This document shows, one piece after another, positions 33-25,915 of a stretch of DNA of 25,915 bases. The translations under genes were made by a program, and so were the position numbers. This DNA comes from a virus: positions 1-25,915 of the IMG/VR virus record IMGVR_UViG_3300037137_000987. The stretch is one strand, 5' to 3'. Under the pieces are notes generated by a model. The model did not search any database, was not told the DNA's origin, and saw only the letters and a program-made list of their open reading frames with translations. Each line of letters opens with the position of its first letter. Within the stretch, counting starts at the first letter, position 1.

Positions 33-473
33 ATGTCGAAATTAGTCATAGGAACGAATAGCTGGACGACAGTGGCCGAGGCGAACACCTACATGGAAAC
101 CAGGTTCGGCTCGTGGGAATTCTGGACTGACGAGACGAACAAGGAAGCCGCGCTCATCACGGCATATAACAAGATTGTCAATTCAGGTTTCTTCGCCGAC
201 CTTCCCGACACCGCCAATGTCGGCATGAAAGCTGCGCAGTGTGAGATGGCCCTTTTCCTTTGTATGGAAGGCGGGGACATTAACCGCCGGGCAGGGTTAC
301 AAGCCCAAGGCGTTGTTCAGGCCGGGATTGCGAAAGAGACCTACGACCCGAACGCACGCGGGAAACTGGCCTTTCCCCCCGAAGTTCTCGCTCTGCTGAA
401 AGACTATTCGCAGGAAGATAACGGAGCTTTTGGAGATGACCTAACGCGTGACGATACGGAGGATGTGGCTTAA
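33..473 (+). CDS. DnaT-like / head-tail connector-type protein
   Basis: A 146-residue protein starting at an ATG seven bases after a strong AAGGAGG. It resembles the small phage proteins called DnaT-like ssDNA-binding protein: an N-terminal 'GTNSW.TVAEANTYM' segment, a middle 'KEAALITAYNKI', then 'VGMKAAQCEMALFL' and an acidic C-terminus. In phages this family sits between the major capsid gene and the minor capsid or neck genes, as here, so a connector/adaptor role in the head-tail junction is more likely than replication. The stop codon overlaps the start of the next gene (TAATG), suggesting translational coupling. The family call is from remembered sequence pattern and position; the connector role is inference. 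Confidence 0.7.
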   Translation: MSKLVIGTNSWTTVAEANTYMETRFGSWEFWTDETNKEAALITAYNKIVNSGFFADLPDTANVGMKAAQCEMALFLCMEGGDINRRAGLQAQGVVQAGIAKETYDPNARGKLAFPPEVLALLKDYSQEDNGAFGDDLTRDDTEDVA

Positions 474-2425
474 TGGCTTTTCGTCTCACAATCAAGGGGT
501 TCGCCAAGGAGATATTCTTGGACAAACGAGTGGAGCAACTAGCATACACGTACCGAGCAGCGCAGAAGAGCCTCATAAGAAAGTTGCGCGATATCGATAT
601 TACCGACTTCCAGAAAGCCCGAGCGCAGATTTTACTGGCCCAGGTTAACCGTGAGATTGCTATGTTAGACCAGATGGCGCGAAAATGGGCGAAGGGGACG
701 ATTCCGACGGCTTACAATTTTGGGTTGGATATCTCAGAAGACAGACTCCGGCAAATGGGGATCACTAAATACGTCAATATGACCTCAGCGATTCATACTG
801 AGGCCGTGGCAGTTCTGACCGACAATGTCACTCTCGACCTTCTGACCGCGAACCAAACGATTAAAAAGAACACGACGCGATTCATTCGGGCGACACAGCA
901 GCAGGTAATCGAAGATAAGCAGATTTCAAAAGCCATCGCCGAGGGGTTGATCCAGGGAGAAACCCGGAAAGAGATTTCAAACCGGATCCTGAAAGATTTT
1001 GAGAAGCAACTTAAGGACGAGAAGTTCATCACAATCAACGGTCGAAACTACGAGCCGGAGGGATATAGTCGAATGGTAGCGCGATCCAGAGTGGCGGAGG
1101 CTTCGAACCAGGCGAACGTCAACGCGGCCCTTCAATATGGGGTTGACCTGGTGCAGGTAGATATCCACGCGGGCTCATGTGAGATGTGCGATCATTTCCA
1201 GGGAAGGATTTACTCTATCTCGGGGAACGATCCGGACTTCCCTCCGCTCGATGAACGCCCGCCCTATCATCCGAACTGCTACTCGGAAGATACCGATGTT
1301 TATACTGCGTCGGGATGGAAAAAAATTAGAGATGTCGCCGTCGGAGAGATGATCTTGTCTTTAAATCCGAAAGACTTTTCTCTTGAGAACGTTCCCGTCG
1401 ATAGAAAGGTTGCAACTAAGAGTGACACGATGATCCATTTTCAAAGCAGGGTAGCGGATATTCTCGTGACCAAGGATCATAAAATGTTCTATCAGACTGA
1501 CTGGAATAGTAAGCATAAAAAATATAAATGGCAGTTCGTTGATGCAAACTCCTTGACGAATTGCGGAAGATTCTACGCCAGTTCAGAATGGTCGAGTAAA
1601 GACCGGGTATCGAATGTGTTTGCTCGTTTTTTGGGAATTTGGTTATCAGAAGGATCAGTTTCGCCCAGAAAGATAGGGAAGAATTTGCTCATTTCAATAG
1701 CACAGAGCCGCAGAGTAAATCCCGATAAGTTTTCGGAAATATTAGAAATCATCACACAAGCTTTCCCGAATAAAAAGCTTTATGTAAATAACAACAGCAT
1801 CCGATTCTATGACTTGAATTTAGGTAAATACCTTTTGCAATTTGGGAAGGCTGCGCATAAATTCGTCCCTAATGAAGTCAAGATGTCCGGGAAGACAATA
1901 ATCCGTGACTTCCTAGACTGTTATCTCATGGGTGATGGCAGTTTAAGAAAGGGCAAACTTTGGAAAAATGGGAAGTTCAGAGATGAACGAATCTATTTCA
2001 CTTCTTCTAAGCGAATGGCTAGCGATCTGGGAGAGTTAATCCTGAAGGTAGGAAGAAGGCCATCATATCATTTGCAAAAAACAAAGGGAATCGTTGTCAA
2101 GCATAAGAACGGAAATTATATCGGCAATCACGATATTTGGCTTGTCAGGGAGTGCTATTCGCAATATATCTCTTTGCAGAACATGAAGATTGAAGAAATC
2201 CCGTATGGGAAGAATGCCTATTGTCTTTCTCTTCAAAAATTTCATACCTTGCTGGTGCGCAGGAACGGGAAAGTTGTATGGAGCGGTAATTGTCGGCATC
2301 AACTTCTTCCGATGACGAAGGAAGCGCTTGAGGATCGAGGGCAAATGGCGGGGGCGATAAAGTTCAGTAATTCGTCTCAGAAAGTTTCTTCGATAAAGCA
2401 ATACGAGGAGGGTCTCTATGTTTAG
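473..2425 (+). CDS. Phage minor capsid protein (MuF/minor capsid 2-like) interrupted by an intein
   Basis: The 650-residue precursor holds a minor capsid/head morphogenesis protein of about 312 residues and a 338-residue intein. The N-extein (1-268) is helical and charged, then carries the diagnostic Cys-x2-Cys stretch 'GSCEMCDHFQGRIYS' followed by 'PPYHPN'. The C-extein starts at Cys607 with 'CRHQLLPM'. Joining them restores the family hallmark HPNCRH, so the intein sits exactly before the conserved cysteine. Such proteins are minor virion components inside or near the portal of SPP1-, Mu- and Lactobacillus-type phages, and act in head assembly. The start is fixed by the TAATG overlap with the upstream gene. 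The intein part is visibly AT-richer than the exteins. Splicing is required to make a normal capsid protein; this is inferred, not shown. Confidence 0.85.
   Translation: MAFRLTIKGFAKEIFLDKRVEQLAYTYRAAQKSLIRKLRDIDITDFQKARAQILLAQVNREIAMLDQMARKWAKGTIPTAYNFGLDISEDRLRQMGITKYVNMTSAIHTEAVAVLTDNVTLDLLTANQTIKKNTTRFIRATQQQVIEDKQISKAIAEGLIQGETRKEISNRILKDFEKQLKDEKFITINGRNYEPEGYSRMVARSRVAEASNQANVNAALQYGVDLVQVDIHAGSCEMCDHFQGRIYSISGNDPDFPPLDERPPYHPNCYSEDTDVYTASGWKKIRDVAVGEMILSLNPKDFSLENVPVDRKVATKSDTMIHFQSRVADILVTKDHKMFYQTDWNSKHKKYKWQFVDANSLTNCGRFYASSEWSSKDRVSNVFARFLGIWLSEGSVSPRKIGKNLLISIAQSRRVNPDKFSEILEIITQAFPNKKLYVNNNSIRFYDLNLGKYLLQFGKAAHKFVPNEVKMSGKTIIRDFLDCYLMGDGSLRKGKLWKNGKFRDERIYFTSSKRMASDLGELILKVGRRPSYHLQKTKGIVVKHKNGNYIGNHDIWLVRECYSQYISLQNMKIEEIPYGKNAYCLSLQKFHTLLVRRNGKVVWSGNCRHQLLPMTKEALEDRGQMAGAIKFSNSSQKVSSIKQYEEGLYV
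1277..2290 (+). mobile_element. LAGLIDADG homing-endonuclease intein in the minor capsid gene
   Basis: Residues 269-606 of the host protein. Block A begins at Cys269 with 'CYSEDTDVYTASGWKKI'. Block B has the TxxH motif in 'LVTKDHKMF'. Two LAGLIDADG-type helices are visible, 'LGIWLSEGS' at 387-395 and 'FLDCYLMGDGS' at about 480-490, with the expected acidic residues Glu and Asp. The C-terminal block is 'NAYCLSLQKFHTLLVRR...' ending 'VWSGN', followed by Cys607 as the +1 nucleophile. The penultimate residue is Gly instead of the usual His, a variant that occurs in other inteins. It should excise itself as protein, and the endonuclease domain may spread the element to intein-free alleles. Both nucleophiles, the terminal Asn and both endonuclease acids are present, so it looks intact. 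Confidence 0.92.
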
Positions 2426-10900: not shown

Positions 10901-11975
10901 TCTCACTGTCGACAATGTCCCATTCACGAACCTTATCGAAAGCTATTCAGAACAAACCGCCTGGACGGGCGACAAAGTCGGGCTGGTAAAGAGCGGGGAC
11001 AACTTGAAGTTTATTCCAGGCCCTTCCGCTTCGATAAGCCCTAGTATGTCTCCTAGCACAAGTCCCTCGCCGTCCAAGAGCCCATCAGCTAGTCCTAGCC
11101 ACTCAGCGTCGGCTAGTCCTTCTCCTTCGATTAGTCCAAGTAAATCACCGTCAGCAAGTCCTTCTTCGAGCCATTCACCGAGTCACTCTGCCTCTGCGAG
11201 TCCTTCACCAAGCGCTTCTCCTTCTTCCAGTCATTCACCTAGCCATTCAGCTTCGGCAAGTCCTTCCCCGAGTGCCTCACCAAGTCCTTCTCCTTCAGTG
11301 AGCCCTTCATCCTCTAAGAGTCCGTCGGTGTCGCCTTCGGTTAGTCCGTCGGCGAGTGTCTCTCCTTCGGTCAGCCCTTCTCCGGGAAGTTACCTGACGG
11401 GAACGTACACCACCCCGGTGCGAGACGTGGGGTTTGTCGCAACGTTCAAGATCGGAATAGACGCTGTCGCTACGGTTTCGAGCGACGATACCTGGCAGGC
11501 TTTCGGAGAGCAAACGTTCGAAGATCTCGAGGATAGCGATCGTTTCGCGGGCGCGGAACTTCCGGGGGCATTGACTTTTGAGATTATAACTTCTGAGGAT
11601 AACATCACCTGGACGGATTGGGCGGCTTGGCAGCCGGGCGATTATCGCTGCCGATACTTTCAGCTTCGTATGACAATGACACGCTCGAGCACTTCGCAAA
11701 TATTATTGTGCTCTCAGTTCGATTATTACGCTGACCTCCCGGACGTTGACGACTTCGGGACAGGAGAGGTCACAGTAGCGGCAGACGGTGCCGTGATTAC
11801 TTTCGTCAAAGAGTACCATCAAATTCCTTCCGTCAACATCGACATTTTGAGTGGTGACGGTTTCATTCATAAATTCACGGTGGCCCCGGACTTGACAGAC
11901 ACCACCATAAAACTTTACAGCCTCGCGGGAGTCACGCAGACCGGGACGTTCCGCTGGGCAAGCCATGGAGTCTGA
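7959..11975 (+). CDS. Host specificity/tip attachment protein, lambda gpJ-like, with Ser-Pro repeat
   Basis: A 1338-residue central tail-tip protein. Residues 1-75 are beta-rich, then about 78-113 is strongly hydrophobic ('WGLLVWAANAIWTYALAHPY' onward). From about 130 the J core begins ('SSPTYGWDGIKQTCEVGIPV' and 'VYGEHRTGGNVI'). The tail-tip hub domains continue to about 780. Two fibronectin III-like domains follow, roughly 790-890 and 895-985 ('LSGYEIRKG', 'DYWIKAIDTSGNYSDAA'). Residues 1022-1142 are a Ser-Pro repeat, and the last 195 residues form two globular domains, the final one ending 'GTFRWASHGV' like H-type-lectin or fibre tips. There is no separate gpI gene, so the N-terminal extension may replace it. 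The tip should bind the host receptor. The start overlaps the K-like stop. Confidence 0.85.
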   Translation: MLNFTYVPERFSKKGSVLKAEVYDPGKPYIYYIQRLKLFPEKFDPEKFTIIDAGAVVTDLNKIPKRKAQVVITPKIEWGLLVWAANAIWTYALAHPYVFWMTVVSTSYSIYSSLTTKARMPSFGGFGAGMDESSPTYGWDGIKQTCEVGIPVSIVYGEHRTGGNVINEYVRTDGNLNYYHCLTCLGEGEIESIESGLVNKNPIENFSGITVTKRMGTNSQTVIPNFEDLHNLSNSIDIELLKNDPYIYTTVDDDVEAFEVHLSLPNGLWAQVAETGQITAWEVSYRVEYKLHSAGSYTDLGIMTISEKNRSTVRRVFRKAGLTAGQYDIRITRTSDDNDDTHTGTLYLLYIDEIKCDDLTYPNSALVAVEALATNELSGSAPNLTWVVKGKKVRVPDVRTAGDIAVAWDDYYYDPDAELFKLLADDTALVWDGVTYVTAYSANPIWCCRDLILASRYGLGRFIDSTLMNDSRLLEGALYCEEKVADGIGGWEKRYRLDVVIDSLTRALDLISQLTAAFNAFPFYSSGMVGMIVDKALDLPTQEFGMGNIIKDSFNQSWKSISEIPNVIEVTFNDAEKDYEQDTILVKDEVALAAGEPERPIKLRVFCTRTTQAIRLGRYALYVAKYINRSITLRAGIDAILCQVGDRIDIAHDVPAWGFSGRLAAGSTTTTVYLDRSVEVESGKTYEVQVCYGANVIETRTVTSAVGAHTSLTITPALTGTPEEDAVYSFGEENIVCKPFIVVSLDRLNSDEVEISAVEYDARVYSEDAMILPQTNYSALEFDTPLVTDLALTERLVKLGDGTIENCIDVWFAKPSIDDRHIWAYEKAKIYLSDNGGASWVYRGETDGASFSIIGNIEAGTEYTVAVVSASKFGKDKAISACPQETITVQGKALPPNDVAGFVVIQSRDRLYMTWTSVSDADLSGYEIRKGTSWGSGDLVATNIRQNYLISLSIEVGAAQDYWIKAIDTSGNYSDAATQAILTVDNVPFTNLIESYSEQTAWTGDKVGLVKSGDNLKFIPGPSASISPSMSPSTSPSPSKSPSASPSHSASASPSPSISPSKSPSASPSSSHSPSHSASASPSPSASPSSSHSPSHSASASPSPSASPSPSPSVSPSSSKSPSVSPSVSPSASVSPSVSPSPGSYLTGTYTTPVRDVGFVATFKIGIDAVATVSSDDTWQAFGEQTFEDLEDSDRFAGAELPGALTFEIITSEDNITWTDWAAWQPGDYRCRYFQLRMTMTRSSTSQILLCSQFDYYADLPDVDDFGTGEVTVAADGAVITFVKEYHQIPSVNIDILSGDGFIHKFTVAPDLTDTTIKLYSLAGVTQTGTFRWASHGV
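11022..11384 (+). repeat. Ser-Pro repeat tract inside the J-like gene
   Basis: 363 bases encode 121 residues made almost only of Ser, Pro and Ala with a few Lys, His and Val, in units such as 'SPSASPS' and 'SPSKSPS'. A longer block containing 'SSSHSPSHSASASPSPSAS' occurs twice in a row, at about 11165-11225 and 11222-11282. Codons differ between copies (TCT, TCA, TCG, AGT, AGC all used), so the protein repeat is better kept than the DNA repeat. It probably forms an extended, flexible stalk between the FN3 domains and the receptor-binding tip. Confidence 0.9.
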
Positions 11976-17491: not shown

Positions 17492-17697
17492 TGGCGCATT
17501 GGATATGTTCGGAATGTGGGGAAACAGCCGTCGGGCATACGACAGTACCAGGAAAACACTTTTTTTTCTGTAAAGCACACTGGTTAATTTATGTAGGCAT
17601 AAAGAAAGGAGTTTTGACGTGTTTGAACAACCCAAAATCAGCATCTTTGCAGCCAGCGTCCGTCCGCACCTCTGGAAAGCGTTCTTCGGTTCACTGA
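17491..17697 (+). CDS. Small zinc-ribbon-like protein
   Basis: A 68-residue ORF from ATG 17491 (alternative ATG 17479). The first half has Cys-x2-Cys in 'WICSECGETAVGH' and a Cys-x2-His in 'FFCKAHW', a likely single zinc site. The last 26 codons overlap the next gene in another frame and look like uninformative sequence, so the protein may have been extended by loss of an earlier stop. It could be a small nucleic-acid-binding or adapter protein; function is not known. Confidence 0.45.
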   Translation: MAHWICSECGETAVGHTTVPGKHFFFCKAHWLIYVGIKKGVLTCLNNPKSASLQPASVRTSGKRSSVH

Positions 17698-18425
17698 AAT
17701 CAAACGACCTGCAATTCGAAGTCGTTTTCGCGGGGAATCTCGCCTATGACATCATCAATTTATTCTCTCCGAAATTCGAAAAGCCAAACCAGTTTTTTCA
17801 TTATATCCAGACCGGGAATATCAAGCCCGCCCAAGCCGCGGAAATTGCTCGACGGCATTGTGAAGGCGAACTCCTGCACTGGTCAGCAGACGATGCGGAA
17901 TATTCTCTTCGCCTAATTGATCGCATCTGGGAATCTTGGAAGAAGTTTAATGATTATAGAACTATTGTCTCCTGCCAGACAATCGAGGACGGGAGTTTCG
18001 TGCTCCTCGAGCGCCACCGTTTGTTCTGGAAAGCGCACAATACCCCGCAAATGGCGCCACTAGGATTTATAAGTTCGATCCTCTGGGACAAACTTGGGGG
18101 AATTGATCGCCGTTTTGTTTCTGGGCAATGGGACAACGACATATTGATGCGGGCGCTGAATGTTGGGGCAGAAGTAGTGTTGTTTACCGAAGGTGGAGAG
18201 ATTTCACTTGATCATCGCGGTAAACATGGCGGCAACCAGGGCACATTTCGCTCAGGTTACCCGAAGGATCGGGAAGTGCTGGAGGGCGCCTGGGCGCCAC
18301 AAGGAAAAGACACTGACCTTCGAACCCCACCTTTTCAGCGTTATGACGGAGGGTTCGAGCCGTTCGATCATGCCGCACCGGATTTTTTAACCGTAAGCCA
18401 AAGTAATAAGGGGATGTGGGAATGA
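17619..18425 (+). CDS. GT-A-type glycosyltransferase (first of three related copies)
   Basis: A 268-residue protein starting at GTG 17619, with AAGGAG seven bases upstream. It begins 'KISIFAASVRPHLWKAFFGS', matching the two later glycosyltransferases ('VAGIRPWNWKALYDS'). Acidic metal/nucleotide-binding residues Asp91-Asp92 lie in 'LLHWSADDAEYS', the place of the DXD-type motif. The middle 'PLGFISSILWDKLGGIDRRF' and 'QWDNDILMRAL' are the acceptor-side pattern of family 2-like enzymes. It should transfer a sugar from a nucleotide-sugar donor; donor and acceptor are unknown. It has no membrane segment. It overlaps the dehydratase-like gene downstream by four bases and opens the cargo operon. Confidence 0.7.
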   Translation: MFEQPKISIFAASVRPHLWKAFFGSLKSNDLQFEVVFAGNLAYDIINLFSPKFEKPNQFFHYIQTGNIKPAQAAEIARRHCEGELLHWSADDAEYSLRLIDRIWESWKKFNDYRTIVSCQTIEDGSFVLLERHRLFWKAHNTPQMAPLGFISSILWDKLGGIDRRFVSGQWDNDILMRALNVGAEVVLFTEGGEISLDHRGKHGGNQGTFRSGYPKDREVLEGAWAPQGKDTDLRTPPFQRYDGGFEPFDHAAPDFLTVSQSNKGMWE

Positions 18426-19387
18426 ACCGCGAGAACGTTCTTGTTACTGGGATCACCGGATCGGGGGGATCGTATATCGCAGAATATATTCTGGCGCATC
18501 ATCCTGAATATCAAGTGGTGGGGATTTGCCGCTGGCACTCGACGAGTTCCTACGCAAATATCGACAATATTAAAGATAAAATAATTTTACGTGAATGTGA
18601 CCTGATGGACCTTTCCTCAATTATTAGGGTTCTCAAAGATTGCCAGCCGAAGAGGATATTCAATTTAGCCGCTTATGCAAATGTACGGAAATGTTTTGAC
18701 ACCCCACTCTCGGTGATTAACAACAACATTATGGGGACCGCGAATTTACTGGAAGCTATCCGGATCGCGTCTCCGGACTCGCTTCTTCAGATGTGCTCGA
18801 CAAGCGAAGTCTATGGCAACCCCAAGGTTTTCCCCATGACCGAGGAGCATCCGCTTTGTCCGGTGAACCCCTATTCCGTCAGTAAACTTGCCCAGGAGCG
18901 GCTGGCGTACGCTTATTTTAAGTCTTGGGGGATCCGGGTGATCATTACTCGGATGTTTACCTACCTTAACCCGCGCAGAGGAGATGTCTTCGCCACGGCC
19001 TTTGCGCGGCAGGTTGTCCGGATTGAGAATGGGTTGCAGAAGGTTCTGAAGCACGGGAACCTCGATTCACTCCGCACGATCATAGACGTACGCGACGCGA
19101 TGCGGGCGTACTGGCTGGCCTGTGATCGCTGCGAACTCGGGGAAGCTTATAACATAGGCGGGGGGACCGTGAAAACTGTAGGCCAATTTCTGGATGTTCT
19201 TAAATCTCTGGCGAAAGTACCCATCGAATCCGAAGTCGATCCCGCATTGTTGAGACCTATTGACGTAACTTGCCAGATTCCCGACACGAGTAAGTTCGAT
19301 ACGGCAACCGGGTTTAAGCCGCAGTATTCATTTGAGGAAAGTGTTCAGTTTCTTCTGGATCACTGCCGAAAGGAGAAGGAAAGATGA
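18422..19387 (+). CDS. NAD(P)-dependent sugar-nucleotide SDR enzyme, GDP-mannose 4,6-dehydratase/reductase-like
   Basis: A 321-residue extended short-chain dehydrogenase. The start at ATG 18422 is chosen because AAGGGGA lies seven bases upstream; a GTG at 18416 is too close to it. The nucleotide-binding loop is 'VTGITGSGGSYIAEY' (G10, G13, G16). The active site has Ser126-Thr127-Ser128 followed by Glu129 ('CSTSEVYG') and Tyr151-x3-Lys155 ('NPYSVSKLAQE'). 'NPRRGDVFATAFARQVVRIE' and 'LRPIDVTCQIPDTSKF' are the substrate-side segments typical of GDP-mannose dehydratase and the related GDP-6-deoxy-4-keto-mannose reductase. It probably makes a deoxy-sugar nucleotide for the glycosyltransferases next to it. 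Dehydratase and reductase cannot be told apart with confidence. Confidence 0.8.
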   Translation: MNRENVLVTGITGSGGSYIAEYILAHHPEYQVVGICRWHSTSSYANIDNIKDKIILRECDLMDLSSIIRVLKDCQPKRIFNLAAYANVRKCFDTPLSVINNNIMGTANLLEAIRIASPDSLLQMCSTSEVYGNPKVFPMTEEHPLCPVNPYSVSKLAQERLAYAYFKSWGIRVIITRMFTYLNPRRGDVFATAFARQVVRIENGLQKVLKHGNLDSLRTIIDVRDAMRAYWLACDRCELGEAYNIGGGTVKTVGQFLDVLKSLAKVPIESEVDPALLRPIDVTCQIPDTSKFDTATGFKPQYSFEESVQFLLDHCRKEKER

Positions 19388-19557
19388 TTAATTATAGTCT
19401 GGCCATTGGGGTATTGATAGGGTTCTTTTTTAGCCTAATTATTAGACTCATAGCGGCATGGATCAAGGACGTGAACTACCGACTTGAAGTTATGAGATGT
19501 GATCGCAAGAATATATACGACAGGTTATGCGAATTAGAAAAGGAAAAGCAAAAATGA
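19384..19557 (+). CDS. Small membrane/coiled-coil protein inside the sugar operon
   Basis: A 57-residue ORF with ATGA overlaps at both ends (with the SDR gene and the flavoprotein gene), so it is part of the coupled operon. Residues 4-28 are hydrophobic ('YSLAIGVLIGFFFSLIIRL'), and the rest is a charged helix ending 'LCELEKEKQK'. It may anchor one of the soluble enzymes at the membrane. No family recognised. Confidence 0.5.
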   Translation: MINYSLAIGVLIGFFFSLIIRLIAAWIKDVNYRLEVMRCDRKNIYDRLCELEKEKQK

Positions 19558-20837
19558 AAACCGCTATTCTTGGCGCAGGTTTAACGGGGCTTGAACTGGG
19601 CCGAAGGCTCCACCTCATGGGGAAAGACTTCACCATCTTCGAGAAAGAATCCCAGCTCGGCGGACTCGCCAGGACATTCAGAACGGGGATATATTCTTGG
19701 GACCTTGGGGTTCACGCGATGTACAGCAAAGACAAAATAATAACCGGGTACTATGACTCGCTTCCAATCCACATACAACGGCATACACGTAACGTAAAAA
19801 TCCGCCACGGAGACAGTTTGATTTCATACCCCTTCGAAAACGCTATCAGCGAACTTCCCCTCAGGGACCGATGGGAGTGTGTACGCGGGTATTTGACTTC
19901 ACACAGAAAGGAAAAGTACTCCAGCCTCGAAGATTGGATCGTTAATCGGCTGGGGTACGGGATCAGCAAGCATTTTATGACGCCGTACAATAAGAAAATC
20001 TGGGACTGTCCACTATACCTAATCTCCGCCGGACTGGTGTCCGGGAAAATCGATCCGATGAGCGTGCACTTGTTCATCCTCTCCGCGTTGGGGTATCGGA
20101 CCATTGGCCGGGCGTATCAATCCAAGTTCGTTTATCCTTTAAACGGCATTCAGGAATTCATCGAGCATACCGCCGCAGATATCCGGGACAGAATTCAGAT
20201 AAATAAAGAAGTCACTGAAATGAAATATAAAAACGGACGCTGGCTGGTTCATGAGGAAGAATTCGACCGGGTTGTTTCCACAATCCCCTTACCCGAACTA
20301 TTGAAAATCCTGGGGATTAACGAAGCCCTCAACCTCAAATGGAATAATACACGCTTTATTATGATCGGACTCAAGCCGGGATGCACTTTCGGGAAATACC
20401 ATGATTGCCACTGGGCGTTTTTTAAAGGTGCTGAGATATTTTACCGCCTCACTTTCATGCACAATTTTAGCAATAAGTTTCCCGCCGCCGTCGTGGCCGA
20501 AGTCACTGATAAATACAATGTAGAACTAAGAAAGTATGTCGTATCTGATTTATTGCGGGCGGGGATTATCCTGGGTCGGGACTGTATTGCTGAAATAGCC
20601 GAGAAACGAGTCGAGTATACATACCCAATTCCGACGATTGGGACAAGTTCGCTTGTCGAGGTAATCGAGAATGAATTGCGAGAACTAAACCTCCATCTTC
20701 TGGGCCGAAACGGACGGTGGAGATATATCAACATGGACGGGGTAATCAAGGAGGTCGATGAGTATGTCACCACAGTTATCAGTAATAATCGCGGGGATCC
20801 AAGTCGAAAGATGGGCGAATTGCTGGGAGTCAATTAA
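19554..20837 (+). CDS. FAD-dependent oxidoreductase, UDP-galactopyranose mutase/amine-oxidase-like
   Basis: A 427-residue flavoprotein starting at ATG 19554 (AAGGAAAAG upstream). The N-terminal dinucleotide fold is clear: 'AILGAGLTGLELGRRL' with G7-G9-G12, Glu30 at the end of the second strand for the ribose, and 'SQLGGLARTF'. The middle has 'SLEDWIVNRLGYGISKHFM' and 'PYNKKIWDCP', a pattern seen in UDP-galactopyranose mutases and in the protoporphyrinogen/amine-oxidase-like proteins found in polysaccharide gene clusters. 'YPLNGIQEFIEHTA' is the substrate-domain signature of the same group. It could interconvert pyranose and furanose sugar nucleotides or oxidise one. The 3' end overlaps the next gene by 74 bases. 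Confidence 0.72.
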   Translation: MKTAILGAGLTGLELGRRLHLMGKDFTIFEKESQLGGLARTFRTGIYSWDLGVHAMYSKDKIITGYYDSLPIHIQRHTRNVKIRHGDSLISYPFENAISELPLRDRWECVRGYLTSHRKEKYSSLEDWIVNRLGYGISKHFMTPYNKKIWDCPLYLISAGLVSGKIDPMSVHLFILSALGYRTIGRAYQSKFVYPLNGIQEFIEHTAADIRDRIQINKEVTEMKYKNGRWLVHEEEFDRVVSTIPLPELLKILGINEALNLKWNNTRFIMIGLKPGCTFGKYHDCHWAFFKGAEIFYRLTFMHNFSNKFPAAVVAEVTDKYNVELRKYVVSDLLRAGIILGRDCIAEIAEKRVEYTYPIPTIGTSSLVEVIENELRELNLHLLGRNGRWRYINMDGVIKEVDEYVTTVISNNRGDPSRKMGELLGVN

Positions 20838-21624
20838 TAAGGCTTTCGCGGGAGAGTGGGAACTCATTTTCGTGGGGCCGTATGAATGCCCACAAGCGGT
20901 TCTAGACAAGGGAAACGTTCTTTACATTCAGGACTTCGGGGCCCCAGCGCGGTGTATGCAGCGCGGGTTACTTGCCGCAACCGGGGACTGGGTTATGTTC
21001 ACCTGGGACAATGGAGAACTGGTCAAGAATAGCATCGATGAAATTTTCGCCATGCTTGAGGAGCATGAGATGGATAAAAATGTCGCGATCGCTGGGAAGT
21101 ATATCGAGGGCATACTTCCGGTTTCACAAGTCTACATGGCCAGTGAAATTTATTATCACATCACCCACCACGCCGGGGCCTGGTCGCCATTCATCCCGGA
21201 CAGTTATTTGCTTTTTAACCAAGGCGTTGTTGCTCGAGAAACTATCCTGCGGTTCGGAGGCTTGGACTGTGCCTTTGAAGCTCCTTCGATGGCCCTGGTT
21301 GACCTTGCTATTCGTATGCAAAAAGGCGGGGTCAACATGATCCTTAAGCCCGAAGTAATGCTTCACGAGGACTGGACTCCAGCAACCGAAGGAGCTCACG
21401 GCCCCATTCATTTCGCCATGATCGAGCATGACCTTCCGCTGTACGCGACCATTTACCAAAACAATAAACTCGAAAAGGGGACTATCGACATTGCCGCCAT
21501 AACCTATAAGGCCCAATTCGATGAGTACCGAAGTAAGGGATGCGCAGATCGTTTACTCATCCCTCTGGATAACTGGACGAACTCACCAGAAAAATGGGAA
21601 AGGAGATTCGGAAAAAATGGATAA
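20764..21624 (+). CDS. Glycosyltransferase-like protein (second copy, altered acidic motif)
   Basis: A 286-residue protein from ATG 20764, nine bases after AAGGAGG; ATG 20758 is three bases from it and less likely. It lies 74 bases into the end of the flavoprotein gene. The start 'LSVIIAGIQVERWANCWESI' and 'EWELIFVGPYECP' match the third copy closely, and both end with 'IPLDNW.N.PE.WERRFG'. Where the sibling has Ala-Asp-Asp, this copy has Trp-Asp82-Asn83 ('FTWDNGELVKN'), so one acidic ligand is changed. It may use a different donor, have lost activity, or act as a partner subunit. Tandem duplication with its neighbour is the simplest origin. Confidence 0.65.
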   Translation: MSPQLSVIIAGIQVERWANCWESINKAFAGEWELIFVGPYECPQAVLDKGNVLYIQDFGAPARCMQRGLLAATGDWVMFTWDNGELVKNSIDEIFAMLEEHEMDKNVAIAGKYIEGILPVSQVYMASEIYYHITHHAGAWSPFIPDSYLLFNQGVVARETILRFGGLDCAFEAPSMALVDLAIRMQKGGVNMILKPEVMLHEDWTPATEGAHGPIHFAMIEHDLPLYATIYQNNKLEKGTIDIAAITYKAQFDEYRSKGCADRLLIPLDNWTNSPEKWERRFGKNG

Positions 21625-22405
21625 AATTAAACTCTCAGTTTTAGTCGCGGGTATTCGTCCCTGGAATTGGAAGGCTTTGTATGATTCTGTCGCGTCCTCA
21701 TTCAGCGGGACGTGGGAGATCGTCTTCGTCGGACCATACCCCCCGCTTGAGGATCTCAAAGACGCACCAAATCTGGTGTTCAAAGAAGACTGGGGATCGC
21801 CTATGCGGGCCCAGCAAATCGCTTTGACAATGGCGAGGGGCGAATTCTGCACCTGGGTAGCCGACGACGGGGTATTTCTTCCCGGCGCACTGGACGAAGC
21901 CTTCAAGTTTTATGCCGAAGAAGATTGGATATCGAACCCTATGCGTGGGGTTATCGGCAGGTACTGGGAAGGAAGCGGGGATCACGCAATCATGAACAAT
22001 CCAGAATATTACCGCCTTAATTTTCACGATGGGGCGCGGAGCCGATGGATTCCAGACGATTGCTTGCTCCTCAACCTCACTATCGCCCCGACAGAAACAA
22101 TACGCTCTTTCGGGGGTTGGGACTGTATCTTCGAAGCAATCCCTATGGCTCTCTGCGACCTGGGAGTCAGGGTTCATATTGCGGGAATGAGATTCAAACT
22201 TTGTCCAGGGGTGCTTTACACCTGCACGCATACCCCCGGAAGAGAGGGAGATCATGGCCCGATTCACGACGCCCAGACCTATTTTGACATGCCCTTGTTT
22301 AAGTCAATCTGGGACGGACCGAACAGGCCGGATCGGATCACTATACCCTTGGACAACTGGAAGAATGCCCCGGAACGTTGGGAACGGAGGTTCGGGCCGA
22401 AATGA
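21617..22405 (+). CDS. Glycosyltransferase-like protein (third copy)
   Basis: A 262-residue protein from ATG 21617; AAAGGAG is about 11 bases upstream, and the in-frame region before it overlaps the previous gene. It is the sibling of the second copy: 'LSVLVAGIRPWNWKALYDSV', 'TWEIVFVGPYPP' and an intact Asp83-Asp84 in 'WVADDGVFLPGALDEAF', like GT-A family 2 enzymes. 'RWIPDDCLLLNLTIAP' and 'FGGWDCIFEAIPMALCDLGV' are shared with the second copy. It likely transfers a sugar, perhaps the one made by the SDR and flavoprotein. It overlaps its neighbours by 8 and 4 bases. Confidence 0.7.
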   Translation: MDKIKLSVLVAGIRPWNWKALYDSVASSFSGTWEIVFVGPYPPLEDLKDAPNLVFKEDWGSPMRAQQIALTMARGEFCTWVADDGVFLPGALDEAFKFYAEEDWISNPMRGVIGRYWEGSGDHAIMNNPEYYRLNFHDGARSRWIPDDCLLLNLTIAPTETIRSFGGWDCIFEAIPMALCDLGVRVHIAGMRFKLCPGVLYTCTHTPGREGDHGPIHDAQTYFDMPLFKSIWDGPNRPDRITIPLDNWKNAPERWERRFGPK

Positions 22406-23628
22406 AGACCAGGTACGCCTTAATTAAACCGAATACGAAGAAGGGGCAGTATGGCGCTCTTGCCGAATTGTCCGCTATTGAGATGCCGCTGTGGTTGCTC
22501 CTTCTTTCCAATCTATACGAAGACTCGCTTATAATCGACGCTGAAGCACAAGGGCTTAATCGGTTAGGAATCCTTATGACATGTCAGAACAATGGGATCA
22601 CTAATGCGATCATCCTTAATACTGGCTCCCAACCGTCGGCAATATATCAGCAAAGCGATGAGTCTTCAAGAGTCAGGCTGCTTTTACAGATGAATGGAGT
22701 TCCGACCGTGGTTTACGACCACCTTCCGTTCAACCCAATGAATATCGGAAGCCCTAAATATTCCCGCCTTCCACTTCAGAAGTATCGCGCCCACAACTGG
22801 CATTCTTGGGGATATCCTGAACGCTCACCTTATGGATCGATTTATACATCCATCAGCTGTCCATTTCACTGTGACTTTTGTTGCATTCATTCATTTTATA
22901 ACCATCCTTACCAGGTGCGGGAAGTGATGGACGTGCTTGAGGACGCGGTACAACTGCGTCGCCTCGGGATCACTCACGTGAAAATAATGGATGAACTTTT
23001 CGCAATAAAAGGAGCACACTTGAAGGAATTAAGCAGGGAACTGAATTTATTAAATCTCGGTCTTAATATGTGGGGATATGCCCGAATTGATACCGTAGAC
23101 GAAGAATCGCTCCGGGCATGCAAGGCCATGGGCGTGAATTGGCTGGCGTACGGAATTGAAAGCGCTGACCGGGAAACCCGGCAAAAATCAGGGAAAGGTA
23201 AATTCACGAATGAAGATATCCGTCAAGTGGTTGATATGACAAAAGACTGCGGGATAAACGTCGTCGGTAATTTCATTTTTGGATTCGCTGATGATGACTG
23301 GGGATCGATGCAAAGGACACTCGACTTCGCGCAAGAACTCAACTGCGAATATTCGAATTTTTATTGCATGACGCCATACCCCACATCCAAAATTTCCGAA
23401 GGGACCCCGACGCAATCCCCTGCATCTTATGCCCAATATTCAAAAGATTTCAAACCGATGGCAACCCGGTTCCGCAGTGGGGAAGATGTTCGAGAGTTTC
23501 GGGATCGAGCATTCAAAACATATTATCAGAACTTTGGATATCTGCATTCGATTCAAGAAAAATTTGGGAAAAATGTAGTCGAGCAGATTAATGCCATGAC
23601 TGCTATCGATATTGTGAGGGACAAATGA
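22402..23628 (+). CDS. Radical SAM protein with B12-binding-like N-terminal region
   Basis: A 408-residue protein from ATG 22402 (GGAGG upstream, ATGA overlap with the previous stop). Residues 1-130 resemble a degenerate B12-binding fold ('LWLLLLSNLYEDSLIIDAEA'), without the usual cobalamin-ligating Asp-x-His-x2-Gly. The radical SAM cluster motif is Cys153-x3-Cys157-x2-Cys160 ('SCPFHCDFCCIHSF'). Downstream are 'KIMDELFAIK', 'RIDTVDEESLRACKAMGVNW' and the glycine motif 'YGIESADRETRQKSGKG', then 'VVGNFIFGFADDDW'. This is the layout of the large B12-binding radical SAM group (BchE-like). It could methylate or rearrange a sugar or lipid in the same pathway; the true substrate is unknown. Confidence 0.8.
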   Translation: MKTRYALIKPNTKKGQYGALAELSAIEMPLWLLLLSNLYEDSLIIDAEAQGLNRLGILMTCQNNGITNAIILNTGSQPSAIYQQSDESSRVRLLLQMNGVPTVVYDHLPFNPMNIGSPKYSRLPLQKYRAHNWHSWGYPERSPYGSIYTSISCPFHCDFCCIHSFYNHPYQVREVMDVLEDAVQLRRLGITHVKIMDELFAIKGAHLKELSRELNLLNLGLNMWGYARIDTVDEESLRACKAMGVNWLAYGIESADRETRQKSGKGKFTNEDIRQVVDMTKDCGINVVGNFIFGFADDDWGSMQRTLDFAQELNCEYSNFYCMTPYPTSKISEGTPTQSPASYAQYSKDFKPMATRFRSGEDVREFRDRAFKTYYQNFGYLHSIQEKFGKNVVEQINAMTAIDIVRDK

Positions 23629-25151
23629 ACATTCTTCTAAACGAATTCCAGCTCGAAATGCCGGGGGGGGCGACATATCTTCCGTATGCAAGCGGACTGC
23701 TCGCGGCTTATGCGCAAAAGAACAGCGCAATCCGAGACTTAAGATTTTATTTCAATGAACAAGATTCATGCCGAAAGCATATGGACGCCAGGGGATATTC
23801 AGTTAGCCAATGGAACCTTAATCGTTCTCTTCAAGATGCGGAGCAATATCCAAATTCAAGAATAGTTTTCGGTGGCCCATCTTCAAGTGAGGTCAAAGAC
23901 TATCCTGCCATCATCGGCGAGGGGGAATATGCCTTCGCGAAGTGGCTGGACACCGGGTCCCTTCTCTCCCTCCCCTACGCCTTGCCAAATATTGACGATA
24001 TCCCATCCCCCTACACAACGGGCCTGTTTGAGGGCCTAGTAGGCCCACAGAGCCAAGCCATCGTCGAAACCGTTCGAGGCTGCCCCTTTGGCTGCGCATA
24101 TTGCGCCTGGGGCAAGGGCGGCAAGGCCGGGAAAAATGTGAGAATGCACTCACTGGCCTATGTCCAGGAAGAGGCCGAATGGATGGGGATAAATAAAATT
24201 AAATATGTTTTCTGTGCTGACGGGAATTTTGGGATGTTTACCCGTGATGTTCAAGTCGCAAAAATATACGCGGACGTCAAACGAAAATATGGTTATCCCG
24301 AACGGTTCCGCGTATGTTTCGGCAAGAACGCAGAAGAGAGTATTTTCGAGACTGCGAGTATTTTGGCAGAAGCCGGACTCATTAAGGCCGTAACGCTCTC
24401 ACGTCAATCCACTAATCCTATCGCGCTCGCATCAGTAGGCCGCGGGAACGTTTCACAGCAGACATTCGACCGTCTGCAAGATCGATATGCCGAAACAGGG
24501 ATCCCAACTTACTCCGAACTAATCCTTGGCCTACCTGGAGAAACATATGAGTCATGGAAGCAAAGCATCATTGATTCTATGCGGCGGGAAACGCAGCTTT
24601 TCCTTTATCCCCTTTCAGCGCTTCCGGGATCACGGCTTAATGAGATTGACTACCGTATGGCTTACGGCATCCGCACCAGGCGAGTGTTGTTGACCCCCGC
24701 GCATTGCATCCCGCCCGCTGTCGCTGAATATGAGGATATCGTAGTCGAGACAAATACACTCGACCCAGAAGAATGGCGAAAGGCGATGGTATTGGGATGG
24801 TTGGTACAGTTGTTTTATTCATTCAAGTTAATGTCCGAAACTCCCGAAAGCATAGTGGTTGCTTGTGAGGCCGTAGCCGACCCTTCTAATCTAGCCGACG
24901 ATCCTCAACTTCAAGCGATCGTCACGAGATTTTACGAAATAGCCGATGGAATGTTAGCGGGTAAAGGACGATGTATTCAGGACGACTTTTGGGGGCCATG
25001 TTATTGGGAGCCGGAGGAATGGGCATATTTAGAGCTTTGCCGTTCGAATAATCCAGAAGTGGCAGCAGATGATCCAGAAAAATTCGCAACGATGGCGTTA
25101 CTTTATGCAAGAAAATCAAACATGAAACGTAATTTAACGACGGTGGAATAG
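23625..25151 (+). CDS. Second radical SAM protein (B12-binding-type family)
   Basis: A 508-residue protein overlapping the previous gene by four bases. The N-terminal part keeps the last piece of a B12-binding domain ('IVFGGPSSSEVKDYPAIIGE'), preceded by a degenerate region. The cluster motif is Cys153-x3-Cys157-x2-Cys160 in 'RGCPFGCAYCAWGKGGKAG'. Then come 'YVFCADGNFGMFTRDVQVAK', 'RVCFGKNAEESIFETA' and 'SELILGLPGETYESWKQSI', all typical of a radical SAM family seen next to glycosyltransferases in bacteria. The C-terminal 170 residues ('LLTPAHCIPPAVAEYEDIVV' onward) are an extra domain. It probably acts on the same product as its neighbour. A weak Shine-Dalgarno and the overlap suggest coupling. 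Confidence 0.8.
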   Translation: MNILLNEFQLEMPGGATYLPYASGLLAAYAQKNSAIRDLRFYFNEQDSCRKHMDARGYSVSQWNLNRSLQDAEQYPNSRIVFGGPSSSEVKDYPAIIGEGEYAFAKWLDTGSLLSLPYALPNIDDIPSPYTTGLFEGLVGPQSQAIVETVRGCPFGCAYCAWGKGGKAGKNVRMHSLAYVQEEAEWMGINKIKYVFCADGNFGMFTRDVQVAKIYADVKRKYGYPERFRVCFGKNAEESIFETASILAEAGLIKAVTLSRQSTNPIALASVGRGNVSQQTFDRLQDRYAETGIPTYSELILGLPGETYESWKQSIIDSMRRETQLFLYPLSALPGSRLNEIDYRMAYGIRTRRVLLTPAHCIPPAVAEYEDIVVETNTLDPEEWRKAMVLGWLVQLFYSFKLMSETPESIVVACEAVADPSNLADDPQLQAIVTRFYEIADGMLAGKGRCIQDDFWGPCYWEPEEWAYLELCRSNNPEVAADDPEKFATMALLYARKSNMKRNLTTVE

Positions 25152-25165
25152 AGAAAGGAGCAAAA

Positions 25166-25618
25166 ATGAGAAGCGTTATTAAAAATCCAGAAATCATTTC
25201 AGAACTCAAAGGGCTTTACATCAAGAAGGGAATATTGAGCCCCGCAGATGTTGTCAGCATGGCAAGGAACCCAAAATCCGCGCTACATGATTCTTTCGAA
25301 TGGGATGATTCAAGGGCGGCAGAAGCATATCGAATTGATCAAGCGCGTGGAATTCTTCAAATTGTTGTCGAGTATTTGCCAAGTGCGCCAGATATTATGA
25401 GCCGGGTATTTATATCCATCTCAGATGATGCAAATAACGGCGGCGGATATCGAGCAATGGTTGATGTCCTCAACGATAAAGATATGCGGAAAACGTTAGT
25501 TATGGACGCGCTTAATGAACTTCAAAAATTTGAGCATCAATATAAAGCAATCAAAGAACTCGTATTGATATTCTCAGCCATAAAAAAAACACGTCGCAGG
25601 CTGGGAGTGGCACGGTAA
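25166..25618 (+). CDS. Conserved phage protein of unknown function
   Basis: A 150-residue protein with AAAGGAGC before the ATG, the first gene after the sugar operon. It has a pattern I recognise from many phages: 'ILSPADVVSMARNPKSALHD', 'SFEWDDSRAAEAYRIDQARG', a beta middle ending 'GGGYRAMVDVLNDKDMR', and a helical end with 'LNELQKFEHQYKAIKELVL'. It is usually in the early/replication side of the genome and is all-soluble. No catalytic motif can be named. The stop is followed directly by the GGCNN array. Confidence 0.65.
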   Translation: MRSVIKNPEIISELKGLYIKKGILSPADVVSMARNPKSALHDSFEWDDSRAAEAYRIDQARGILQIVVEYLPSAPDIMSRVFISISDDANNGGGYRAMVDVLNDKDMRKTLVMDALNELQKFEHQYKAIKELVLIFSAIKKTRRRLGVAR

Positions 25619-25810
25619 GGCCTGGCCCGGCGGGGCGAGGCGGGGCAGGCGAGGCTGGGCTAGGCGAGGCTGGGCTAGGCAAGGCAGGCTGGGCTAGGCA
25701 AGGCGTGGCGTGGCAGGGCAAGGCAAGGCAGGCAAGGCAAGGCTCGGCGAGGCAGGCAAGGCAAGGCAGGGCAAGGCATGGCAGGGCAAGGCATGGCAAG
25801 GCAGGCAAGG
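25619..25810 (+). repeat. GGCNN pentamer array (192 bp, G/C-rich)
   Basis: Starting right after the stop of the preceding gene, about 38 units of GGC plus two variable bases follow each other, with GGCA four-base units interspersed. Early units carry CT, CC, GG, GA; middle units TG, TA, GA; late units are mostly AA, AG or AT. Blocks of three units recur: GGCGAGGCTGGGCTA twice near 25649-25680, and GGCAGGGCAAGGCAT twice near 25767-25796. A five-base period cannot be in frame for protein, and stops occur, so this is not coding. Every unit has GG on the plus strand. Confidence 0.93.
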
Positions 25811-25843
25811 AAAAAAAACAACAAACAAAAAAGGAGAATCACA
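25811..25843 (+). promoter_or_regulatory. A-rich leader with ribosome-binding site of the last gene
   Basis: Immediately after the pentamer array the sequence changes to almost pure A with a few C (25811-25830), then AAAAGGAG at about 25828-25835 and the ATG at 25844. The Shine-Dalgarno is strong and open. The sharp switch from G-rich to A-rich sequence is notable. Confidence 0.7.
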
Positions 25844-25915
25844 ATGGAAACCAAAACAGTTCAAATCAAACCACCGAACATTAAGACAATTGTTTTTGAA
25901 ATCAAAGGTACTGCA
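25844..25915 (+). CDS. Start of a phage protein cut by the window end
   Basis: Only the first 24 codons are present, 'METKTVQIKPPNIKTIVFEI' and then Lys-Gly-Thr-Ala. The start is well supported by AAAAGGAG eight to nine bases upstream. 'KPPN....F.I.GTA' resembles the start of a phage protein family of unknown function from early regions. The rest lies outside the window. Confidence 0.6.
   Translation, partial: METKTVQIKPPNIKTIVFEIKGTA

What the first reader, a model, noticed from the sequence alone, without database searches (positions are those of the whole stretch)
25619..25810. 192-bp array of GGCNN pentamers between two early phage genes
The sequence is a near-continuous run of GGC plus two free bases, with all G doublets on one strand. 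It is non-coding and lies in the leader of a well-formed gene. Selection appears to hold GGC at a five-base spacing while the other two bases vary, which is unlike a simple microsatellite. Possible roles: a protein- or helicase-loading site, an R-loop-prone origin of replication, a recombination (Chi-like) or packaging signal, or a structured leader RNA.
Basis: partly seen in the sequence, partly recalled or inferred. Interest (0 to 1): 0.78.

Follow-up and report, generated by a model that had tools for sequence, protein, structure and literature searches.

The report
Phage VIPR guide-RNA repeat array
The GGC-plus-two-free-bases repeat is almost certainly the guide-RNA array of a VIPR system, a recently described phage weapon in which a CRISPR-like protein uses the variable base pairs between fixed GGC triplets to find the DNA of rival phages; this window is a new member of that known kind.

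Summary
From 25619 to 25808 there are 39 uninterrupted GGC triplets, spaced 5 bases (33 times) or 4 bases (5 times, always GGCA). Composition-matched shuffles never exceed 6. A GGN ladder runs on from 25599 to 25813.

It is not an origin, Chi-like site, packaging site or simple leader. The array sits immediately before the start of a vipr gene; only 24 codons of that gene are in the window. A second contig overlaps the end: 105/105 flanking bases are identical, the only 3 differences lie in the free bases of the array, and it carries the complete gene. The family profile hits PDB "SUSP1 Vipr protein" (E=7e-40). An AlphaFold model of a close relative matches Csm3/Cas7 RAMPs. In 80 related loci fetched by the gene alone, GGY arrays of 8 or more units occur in 39 on the gene's strand and in 0 on the other. 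Degenerate GGCNN arrays found without using the gene carry it in 81 of 106 loci.

VIPR was published in 2026 (PMC13142463): GGY/NN repeats whose NN bases read DNA. This is a new member. One feature stands out, a GGCAGGC mark locked at 5n+4 spacing. No target of this array was found.

The parts
25619..25808 (+). vrRNA array core: 39 GGC units (33 spacings of 5, 5 of 4)
25599..25813 (+). whole GGN ladder, 44 steps; the first four units (GGCTG GGAGT GGCAC GGTAA) overlap the end of the upstream gene
25644..25650 (+). GGCAGGC punctuation mark 1 (4-nt unit GGCA)
   Evidence: most enriched 7-mer next to vipr genes
25683..25689 (+). GGCAGGC mark 2 (39 nt after mark 1)
25727..25733 (+). GGCAGGC mark 3 (44 nt after mark 2)
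25751..25757 (+). GGCAGGC mark 4 (24 nt after mark 3)
25800..25806 (+). GGCAGGC mark 5 (49 nt after mark 4), last complete unit of the array
25844..25915 (+). first 24 codons of the vipr (RAMP) gene, cut by the contig end (METKTVQIKPPNIKTIVFEIKGTA...)
   Evidence: the complete gene is on the overlapping contig L299 2432-1797 (-)
25832..25836 (+). ribosome-binding site (AGGAG) of vipr
   Evidence: sequence
25166..25618 (+). 150-aa gene of phrog_15946, recurrent neighbour of vipr and of the arrays; probable VIPR accessory protein (vap)

Best explanation
The array is the guide-RNA (vrRNA) array of a VIPR system. Inferred steps: the + strand is transcribed; Vipr protein, encoded just downstream, coats the RNA with one subunit per GGCNN unit; the fixed GGC is gripped by the protein and not read; the two free bases of each unit pair with target DNA with one skipped base between dinucleotides; bound target DNA of a rival phage, satellite or prophage is silenced. 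Shown here: the array, its conservation pattern, its strand and its link to vipr. Shown by others for SUSP1 and P. fulva VIPR (PMC13142463): vrRNA expression, binding by Vipr, and, for SUSP1, the 1-nt skip rule and repression. In this clade the long array is divided by GGCAGGC marks into stretches of 4 to 9 full units, which I read as several guides laid head to tail or overlapping.
For: Overlapping contig L299 matches 138/141 bases. All three differences are the second free base of array units, and the 105 bases after the array are identical and run into a complete 211-aa vipr gene. The family profile hits PDB 36pp_D 'SUSP1 Vipr protein' at E=7e-40. The model of clade member L106 (pLDDT 93) has Csm3/Cas7 RAMPs as its top PDB fold hits. 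vipr-only search: GGY chains of 8 or more units in 39/80 loci on the vipr strand and 0/80 on the other; relaxed GGH chains in 50/66 non-redundant loci against 0. Array-only search: 81/106 degenerate-array loci carry vipr. Arrays beside vipr lie on its strand in 99 of 101 cases. In cellular genomes the same pattern gives mostly pure microsatellites, and only 3/80 of those loci carry vipr. The published consensus GGY/NN matches exactly.
Against: Only 24 codons of vipr are in the window, and the full gene comes from another record that differs within the array. Compared alone, its 211-aa protein hits 36pp_D only at E=0.019; the strong link goes through the family profile. No structured 3' tail, which the published vrRNAs have, was recognised. 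Exact target searches with two stretches of this array gave no better than chance. The free bases here are AA-rich (11 of 33 five-base units), which lowers guide information. Transcription is untested.
Confidence: 0.95

Rival explanations
1. The array is an RNA leader that regulates the vipr gene itself, working like the TRAP protein, which wraps RNA carrying triplets separated by two free bases.
For: It lies just upstream of the vipr start, on its strand, with triplet + NN geometry. Vipr is an RNA-binding RAMP, so self-binding is plausible.
Against: Arrays also lie downstream of vipr or beyond the accessory gene. A leader would not need hypervariable free bases. The published VIPR work shows guide function. 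Autoregulation could still be an extra effect.
Confidence: 0.03
2. Structural DNA/RNA element: two-layer G-quadruplex, R-loop-prone origin, or folded leader.
For: GG doublets all on one strand; the RNA folds better than shuffles (z = -4.8).
Against: A G-quadruplex needs only GG, yet the C is fixed in 39/39 units. The centroid fold is almost empty. No GC-skew turn and no Rfam match. It does not explain the link to a RAMP gene.
Confidence: 0.01
3. Microsatellite slippage or an assembly artefact.
For: Pure GGCNN microsatellites exist in bacterial genomes. Parts of this array look locally duplicated (TG TA units). Both overlapping contigs end in or near the array.
Against: Unit entropy is high (3.2 bits). 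The same architecture appears in many independent contigs and in cultured phages. Contig breaks are what a hypervariable repeat would cause.
Confidence: 0.01

Closest known systems
VIPR system of Escherichia phage SUSP1 (vrRNA + Vipr; PMC13142463; PDB 36pp)
   Same: GGY/NN repeats with fixed GGY and variable NN, beside a RAMP-fold vipr gene on the same strand, in a phage, with an accessory gene.
   Different: Published vrRNAs have 9-16 repeats each plus a structured tail. Here 39-44 units run without a break, the triplet is GGC throughout the core, GGCAGGC marks divide the array, and no tail was recognised.
VIPR types with 'staggered arrays with overlapping vrRNAs' (mentioned in PMC13142463, its fig. 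S18 not readable here)
   Same: Likely the same kind of long continuous array.
   Different: Cannot be compared in detail: the supplement is not available.
Type III CRISPR Csm3/Cas7 RAMP backbone proteins
   Same: RAMP fold with RRM core and glycine-rich loop (fold hits); from general knowledge, periodic contact with guide RNA.
   Different: Shorter single-RRM phage protein; no CRISPR repeats or cas genes; five-base rather than six-base period; non-contiguous reading.
TRAP attenuation sites (from general knowledge)
   Same: RNA triplets separated by two free bases.
   Different: Different triplet, 11 sites, no vipr-like protein; only an analogy.

Membership tests
VIPR | Vipr protein of RAMP fold encoded beside the array | tested here: met
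   24 codons in the window; complete gene on an overlapping contig with 105/105 identical flank; profile to 36pp_D E=7e-40; RAMP fold hits
VIPR | RNA of alternating GGY and NN | tested here: met
   39/39 units GGC, period 5 with five 4-nt GGCA units
VIPR | NN hypervariable while GGY is conserved | tested here: met
   3 of 3 differences to the overlapping contig are in NN; unit entropy at least 2.2 bits in 164/184 viral arrays
VIPR | Array intergenic and on the strand of vipr | tested here: met
   window; set: 99/101 and 39 vs 0 of 80 loci
VIPR | vipr accessory protein (vap) gene | tested here: inconclusive
   phrog_15946 gene present in 68/80 vipr loci of this clade, 67 downstream on the same strand; upstream in the window. 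Its fold has no significant match and the published vap families could not be compared
VIPR | 9-16 repeats per vrRNA and an invariable 3' tail | tested here: inconclusive
   continuous array divided by GGCAGGC marks; no Rfam match or conserved tail recognised
VIPR | Target DNA matched with a 1-nt skip | tested here: inconclusive
   two stretches (8 and 9 units) scanned; 37 and 82 stretches matched, none extended beyond chance
VIPR | vrRNA expressed and bound by Vipr | not testable with these tools
   needs sRNA-seq or pull-down
CRISPR array | long identical repeats separated by unique spacers | tested here: not met
   units of 4-5 nt only
Simple microsatellite | near-identical units | tested here: not met
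   unit entropy 3.2 bits against 0-1.5 bits for most genomic GGCNN hits

The most novel reading that the evidence does not exclude
In this VIPR clade GGCAGGC is a true punctuation code: a 4-nt unit, locked at 5n+4 spacing, that delimits or registers successive guides inside one unbroken array. One transcript would then carry several guides without separate tails or promoters, and guides could be swapped mark to mark.
Probability: 0.4. Interest if true: 0.6.

Novelty: new member of a known kind. Interest (0 to 1): 0.5.

Why it matters
It shows, from raw sequence and without the published list, that a reader can find VIPR loci by their array. It adds an independent test of the published model on many environmental phages: the same strand bias, conserved GGY and variable NN. 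It also exposes a regular GGCAGGC mark that may define guide boundaries, which anyone decoding VIPR targets in long arrays needs to know.

Tried and rejected
Cumulative GC skew: no turn. Rfam: nothing. Promoters and terminators: at chance level. blastn of the array in phages: no match. Local target search with skips 0-4 over about 2.5 Mb: no skip stood out. Two collection scans for targets of this array: chance level. Search for another contig sharing the 5' side of the array: none. First vipr profile too diverse for the locus search, replaced by a clade alignment. Fold of the accessory protein: no significant match; weak winged-helix resemblances only. mis-numbered some loci in its array-side counts; one search replaces those.

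Full report
OBSERVATION. At 25619-25808 there are 39 consecutive GGC triplets, spaced 5 (33 times) or 4 (5 times; the unit is then always GGCA), with no break. Shuffling the array's own bases 20,000 times gives at most 6 in a row, and the rest of the window at most 2. The register begins inside the last codons of the upstream gene (25599) and ends at 25813, giving 44 GG steps. The window is a whole IMG/VR record that ends about 100 bases after the array, so the downstream gene is cut after 24 codons.

IT IS A PHAGE FEATURE, NOT A MICROSATELLITE. Scans for GGCNN runs in viral contigs and bacterial genomes give different things. In viral loci, 164 of 184 arrays of 12 or more units have varied units (entropy at least 2.2 bits). 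In genomes only 4 of 83 do, and most of the rest are near-pure repeats. Over all varied arrays the 4-nt unit is GGCA in 184 of 198 cases.

THE PARTNER GENE. Genes next to varied arrays fall mainly into two families. Family A (about 200 aa, phrog_4652, no known function) adjoins arrays in 69 loci. Family B (phrog_15946) does so in 30 loci and includes the window's 150-aa gene. Arrays lie on the strand of A in 99 of 101 cases. Of 106 loci with varied arrays in the unbiased pattern scan, 81 encode A; in some of the others the array lies close to the end of the fetched sequence. A profile of 51 A proteins hits one solved structure clearly, PDB 36pp chain D, 'SUSP1 Vipr protein', E = 7e-40. AlphaFold of a clade member (L106) gives pLDDT 93, and Foldseek against structures released up to April 2026 finds Csm3/Cas7-type RAMP proteins as the top hits.

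THE WINDOW'S OWN VIPR GENE. A 26-base probe from the window's end finds one other contig, IMGVR_UViG_3300037137_000877 (L299). It overlaps the window by 141 bases with 138 identities. The 105 bases outside the array are all identical. The three differences are each the second free base of a unit. This contig continues into a complete 211-aa Vipr protein ending ...GICEGRPDSKNSVGMGWGTF.... Compared as a single sequence it hits 36pp_D only weakly (E = 0.019); the family profile makes the link.

TEST IN THE OTHER DIRECTION. A search with five close Vipr proteins, using no array information, returned at least 567 relatives, of which 80 loci were kept. GGY chains of 8 or more units occur in 39 of 80 on the vipr strand and in none on the other. 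With a relaxed GGH motif, 50 of 66 non-redundant loci have them, against none on the other strand. Shuffled controls never reach 6. Family B lies within 3 kb in 68 of 80 loci, 67 times downstream on the same strand; in the window it lies upstream of the array. Cultured or named phages also carry the set: Mycobacterium phage Saal, Gordonia phage UmaThurman and cyanophage Cy-LDV1.

PUBLISHED SYSTEM. One paper describes this (PMC13142463). VIPR systems combine a Vipr RAMP protein with vrRNAs of alternating GGY and NN. NN bases read double-stranded DNA with one skipped base between dinucleotides. Natural targets are competing phages and satellites, and the complex represses transcription. The window's array meets the sequence features of a vrRNA array. 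Expression and targets were not shown here.

A FEATURE OF THIS CLADE. GGCAGGC is the most strand-biased 7-mer around these vipr genes (289 against 12; present in 59 of 66 loci). The distance between successive copies is 5n+4 in 132 of 183 cases, mostly 34 to 64 nt. It persists in relatives whose other triplets have relaxed. In the window the marks start at 25644, 25683, 25727, 25751 and 25800. The simplest reading is that they delimit or register guides of about 7 to 12 units in one long array. The paper mentions 'staggered arrays with overlapping vrRNAs' in its supplement, which could not be read, so this may already be known.

TARGETS. [quoted passage not shown] The 37 and 82 matching stretches did not extend beyond chance into neighbouring units. 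Absence of a target in this collection is not evidence against the model.

VERDICT. Observation confirmed; proposed roles replaced by vrRNA guide array. New member of a known kind, with a possibly undescribed punctuation mark.

Noticed in passing
window 473-2425: Minor capsid protein (Phage_min_cap2 / Mu F-like) interrupted by a region that looks like an intein (CYSEDTDVYTASGWKKIRDVAVGE ... VVWSGNCRHQ); NCBIfam finds a weak match in that region to a replicative DNA helicase model.
   Followed up: no
window 17619-25151: Cargo-like block between lysis genes and vipr: GDP-mannose dehydratase-like epimerase, a UDP-galactopyranose-mutase-like flavoprotein, glycan-related genes and two radical SAM proteins, one close to B12-dependent methyltransferases; unusual for a phage.
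   Followed up: no
window 11161-11352: Ser-Pro-rich repeat tract (SPSPSPSAS) inside the tail attachment protein.
   Followed up: no
L297 5612-5778 (Mycobacterium phage Saal): A cultured group of Mycobacterium smegmatis phages carries Vipr, family B and, in Saal, a 34-unit array with GGCA every 12 units: a tractable laboratory system.
   Followed up: partly
L087, L093, L128, L135, L143, L181: A ParB-like protein family lies next to varied arrays in six loci; possible other accessory gene.
   Followed up: no
L299, L303, L017, L076, L103, L136 ends: Several contigs end inside a GGCNN array, as expected if variable repeats break metagenome assembly.
   Followed up: partly
L309 3620-4120: Closest other relative (Vipr 77% identical) has a relaxed GGN array between vipr and family B, with gene order opposite to the window.
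   Followed up: partly
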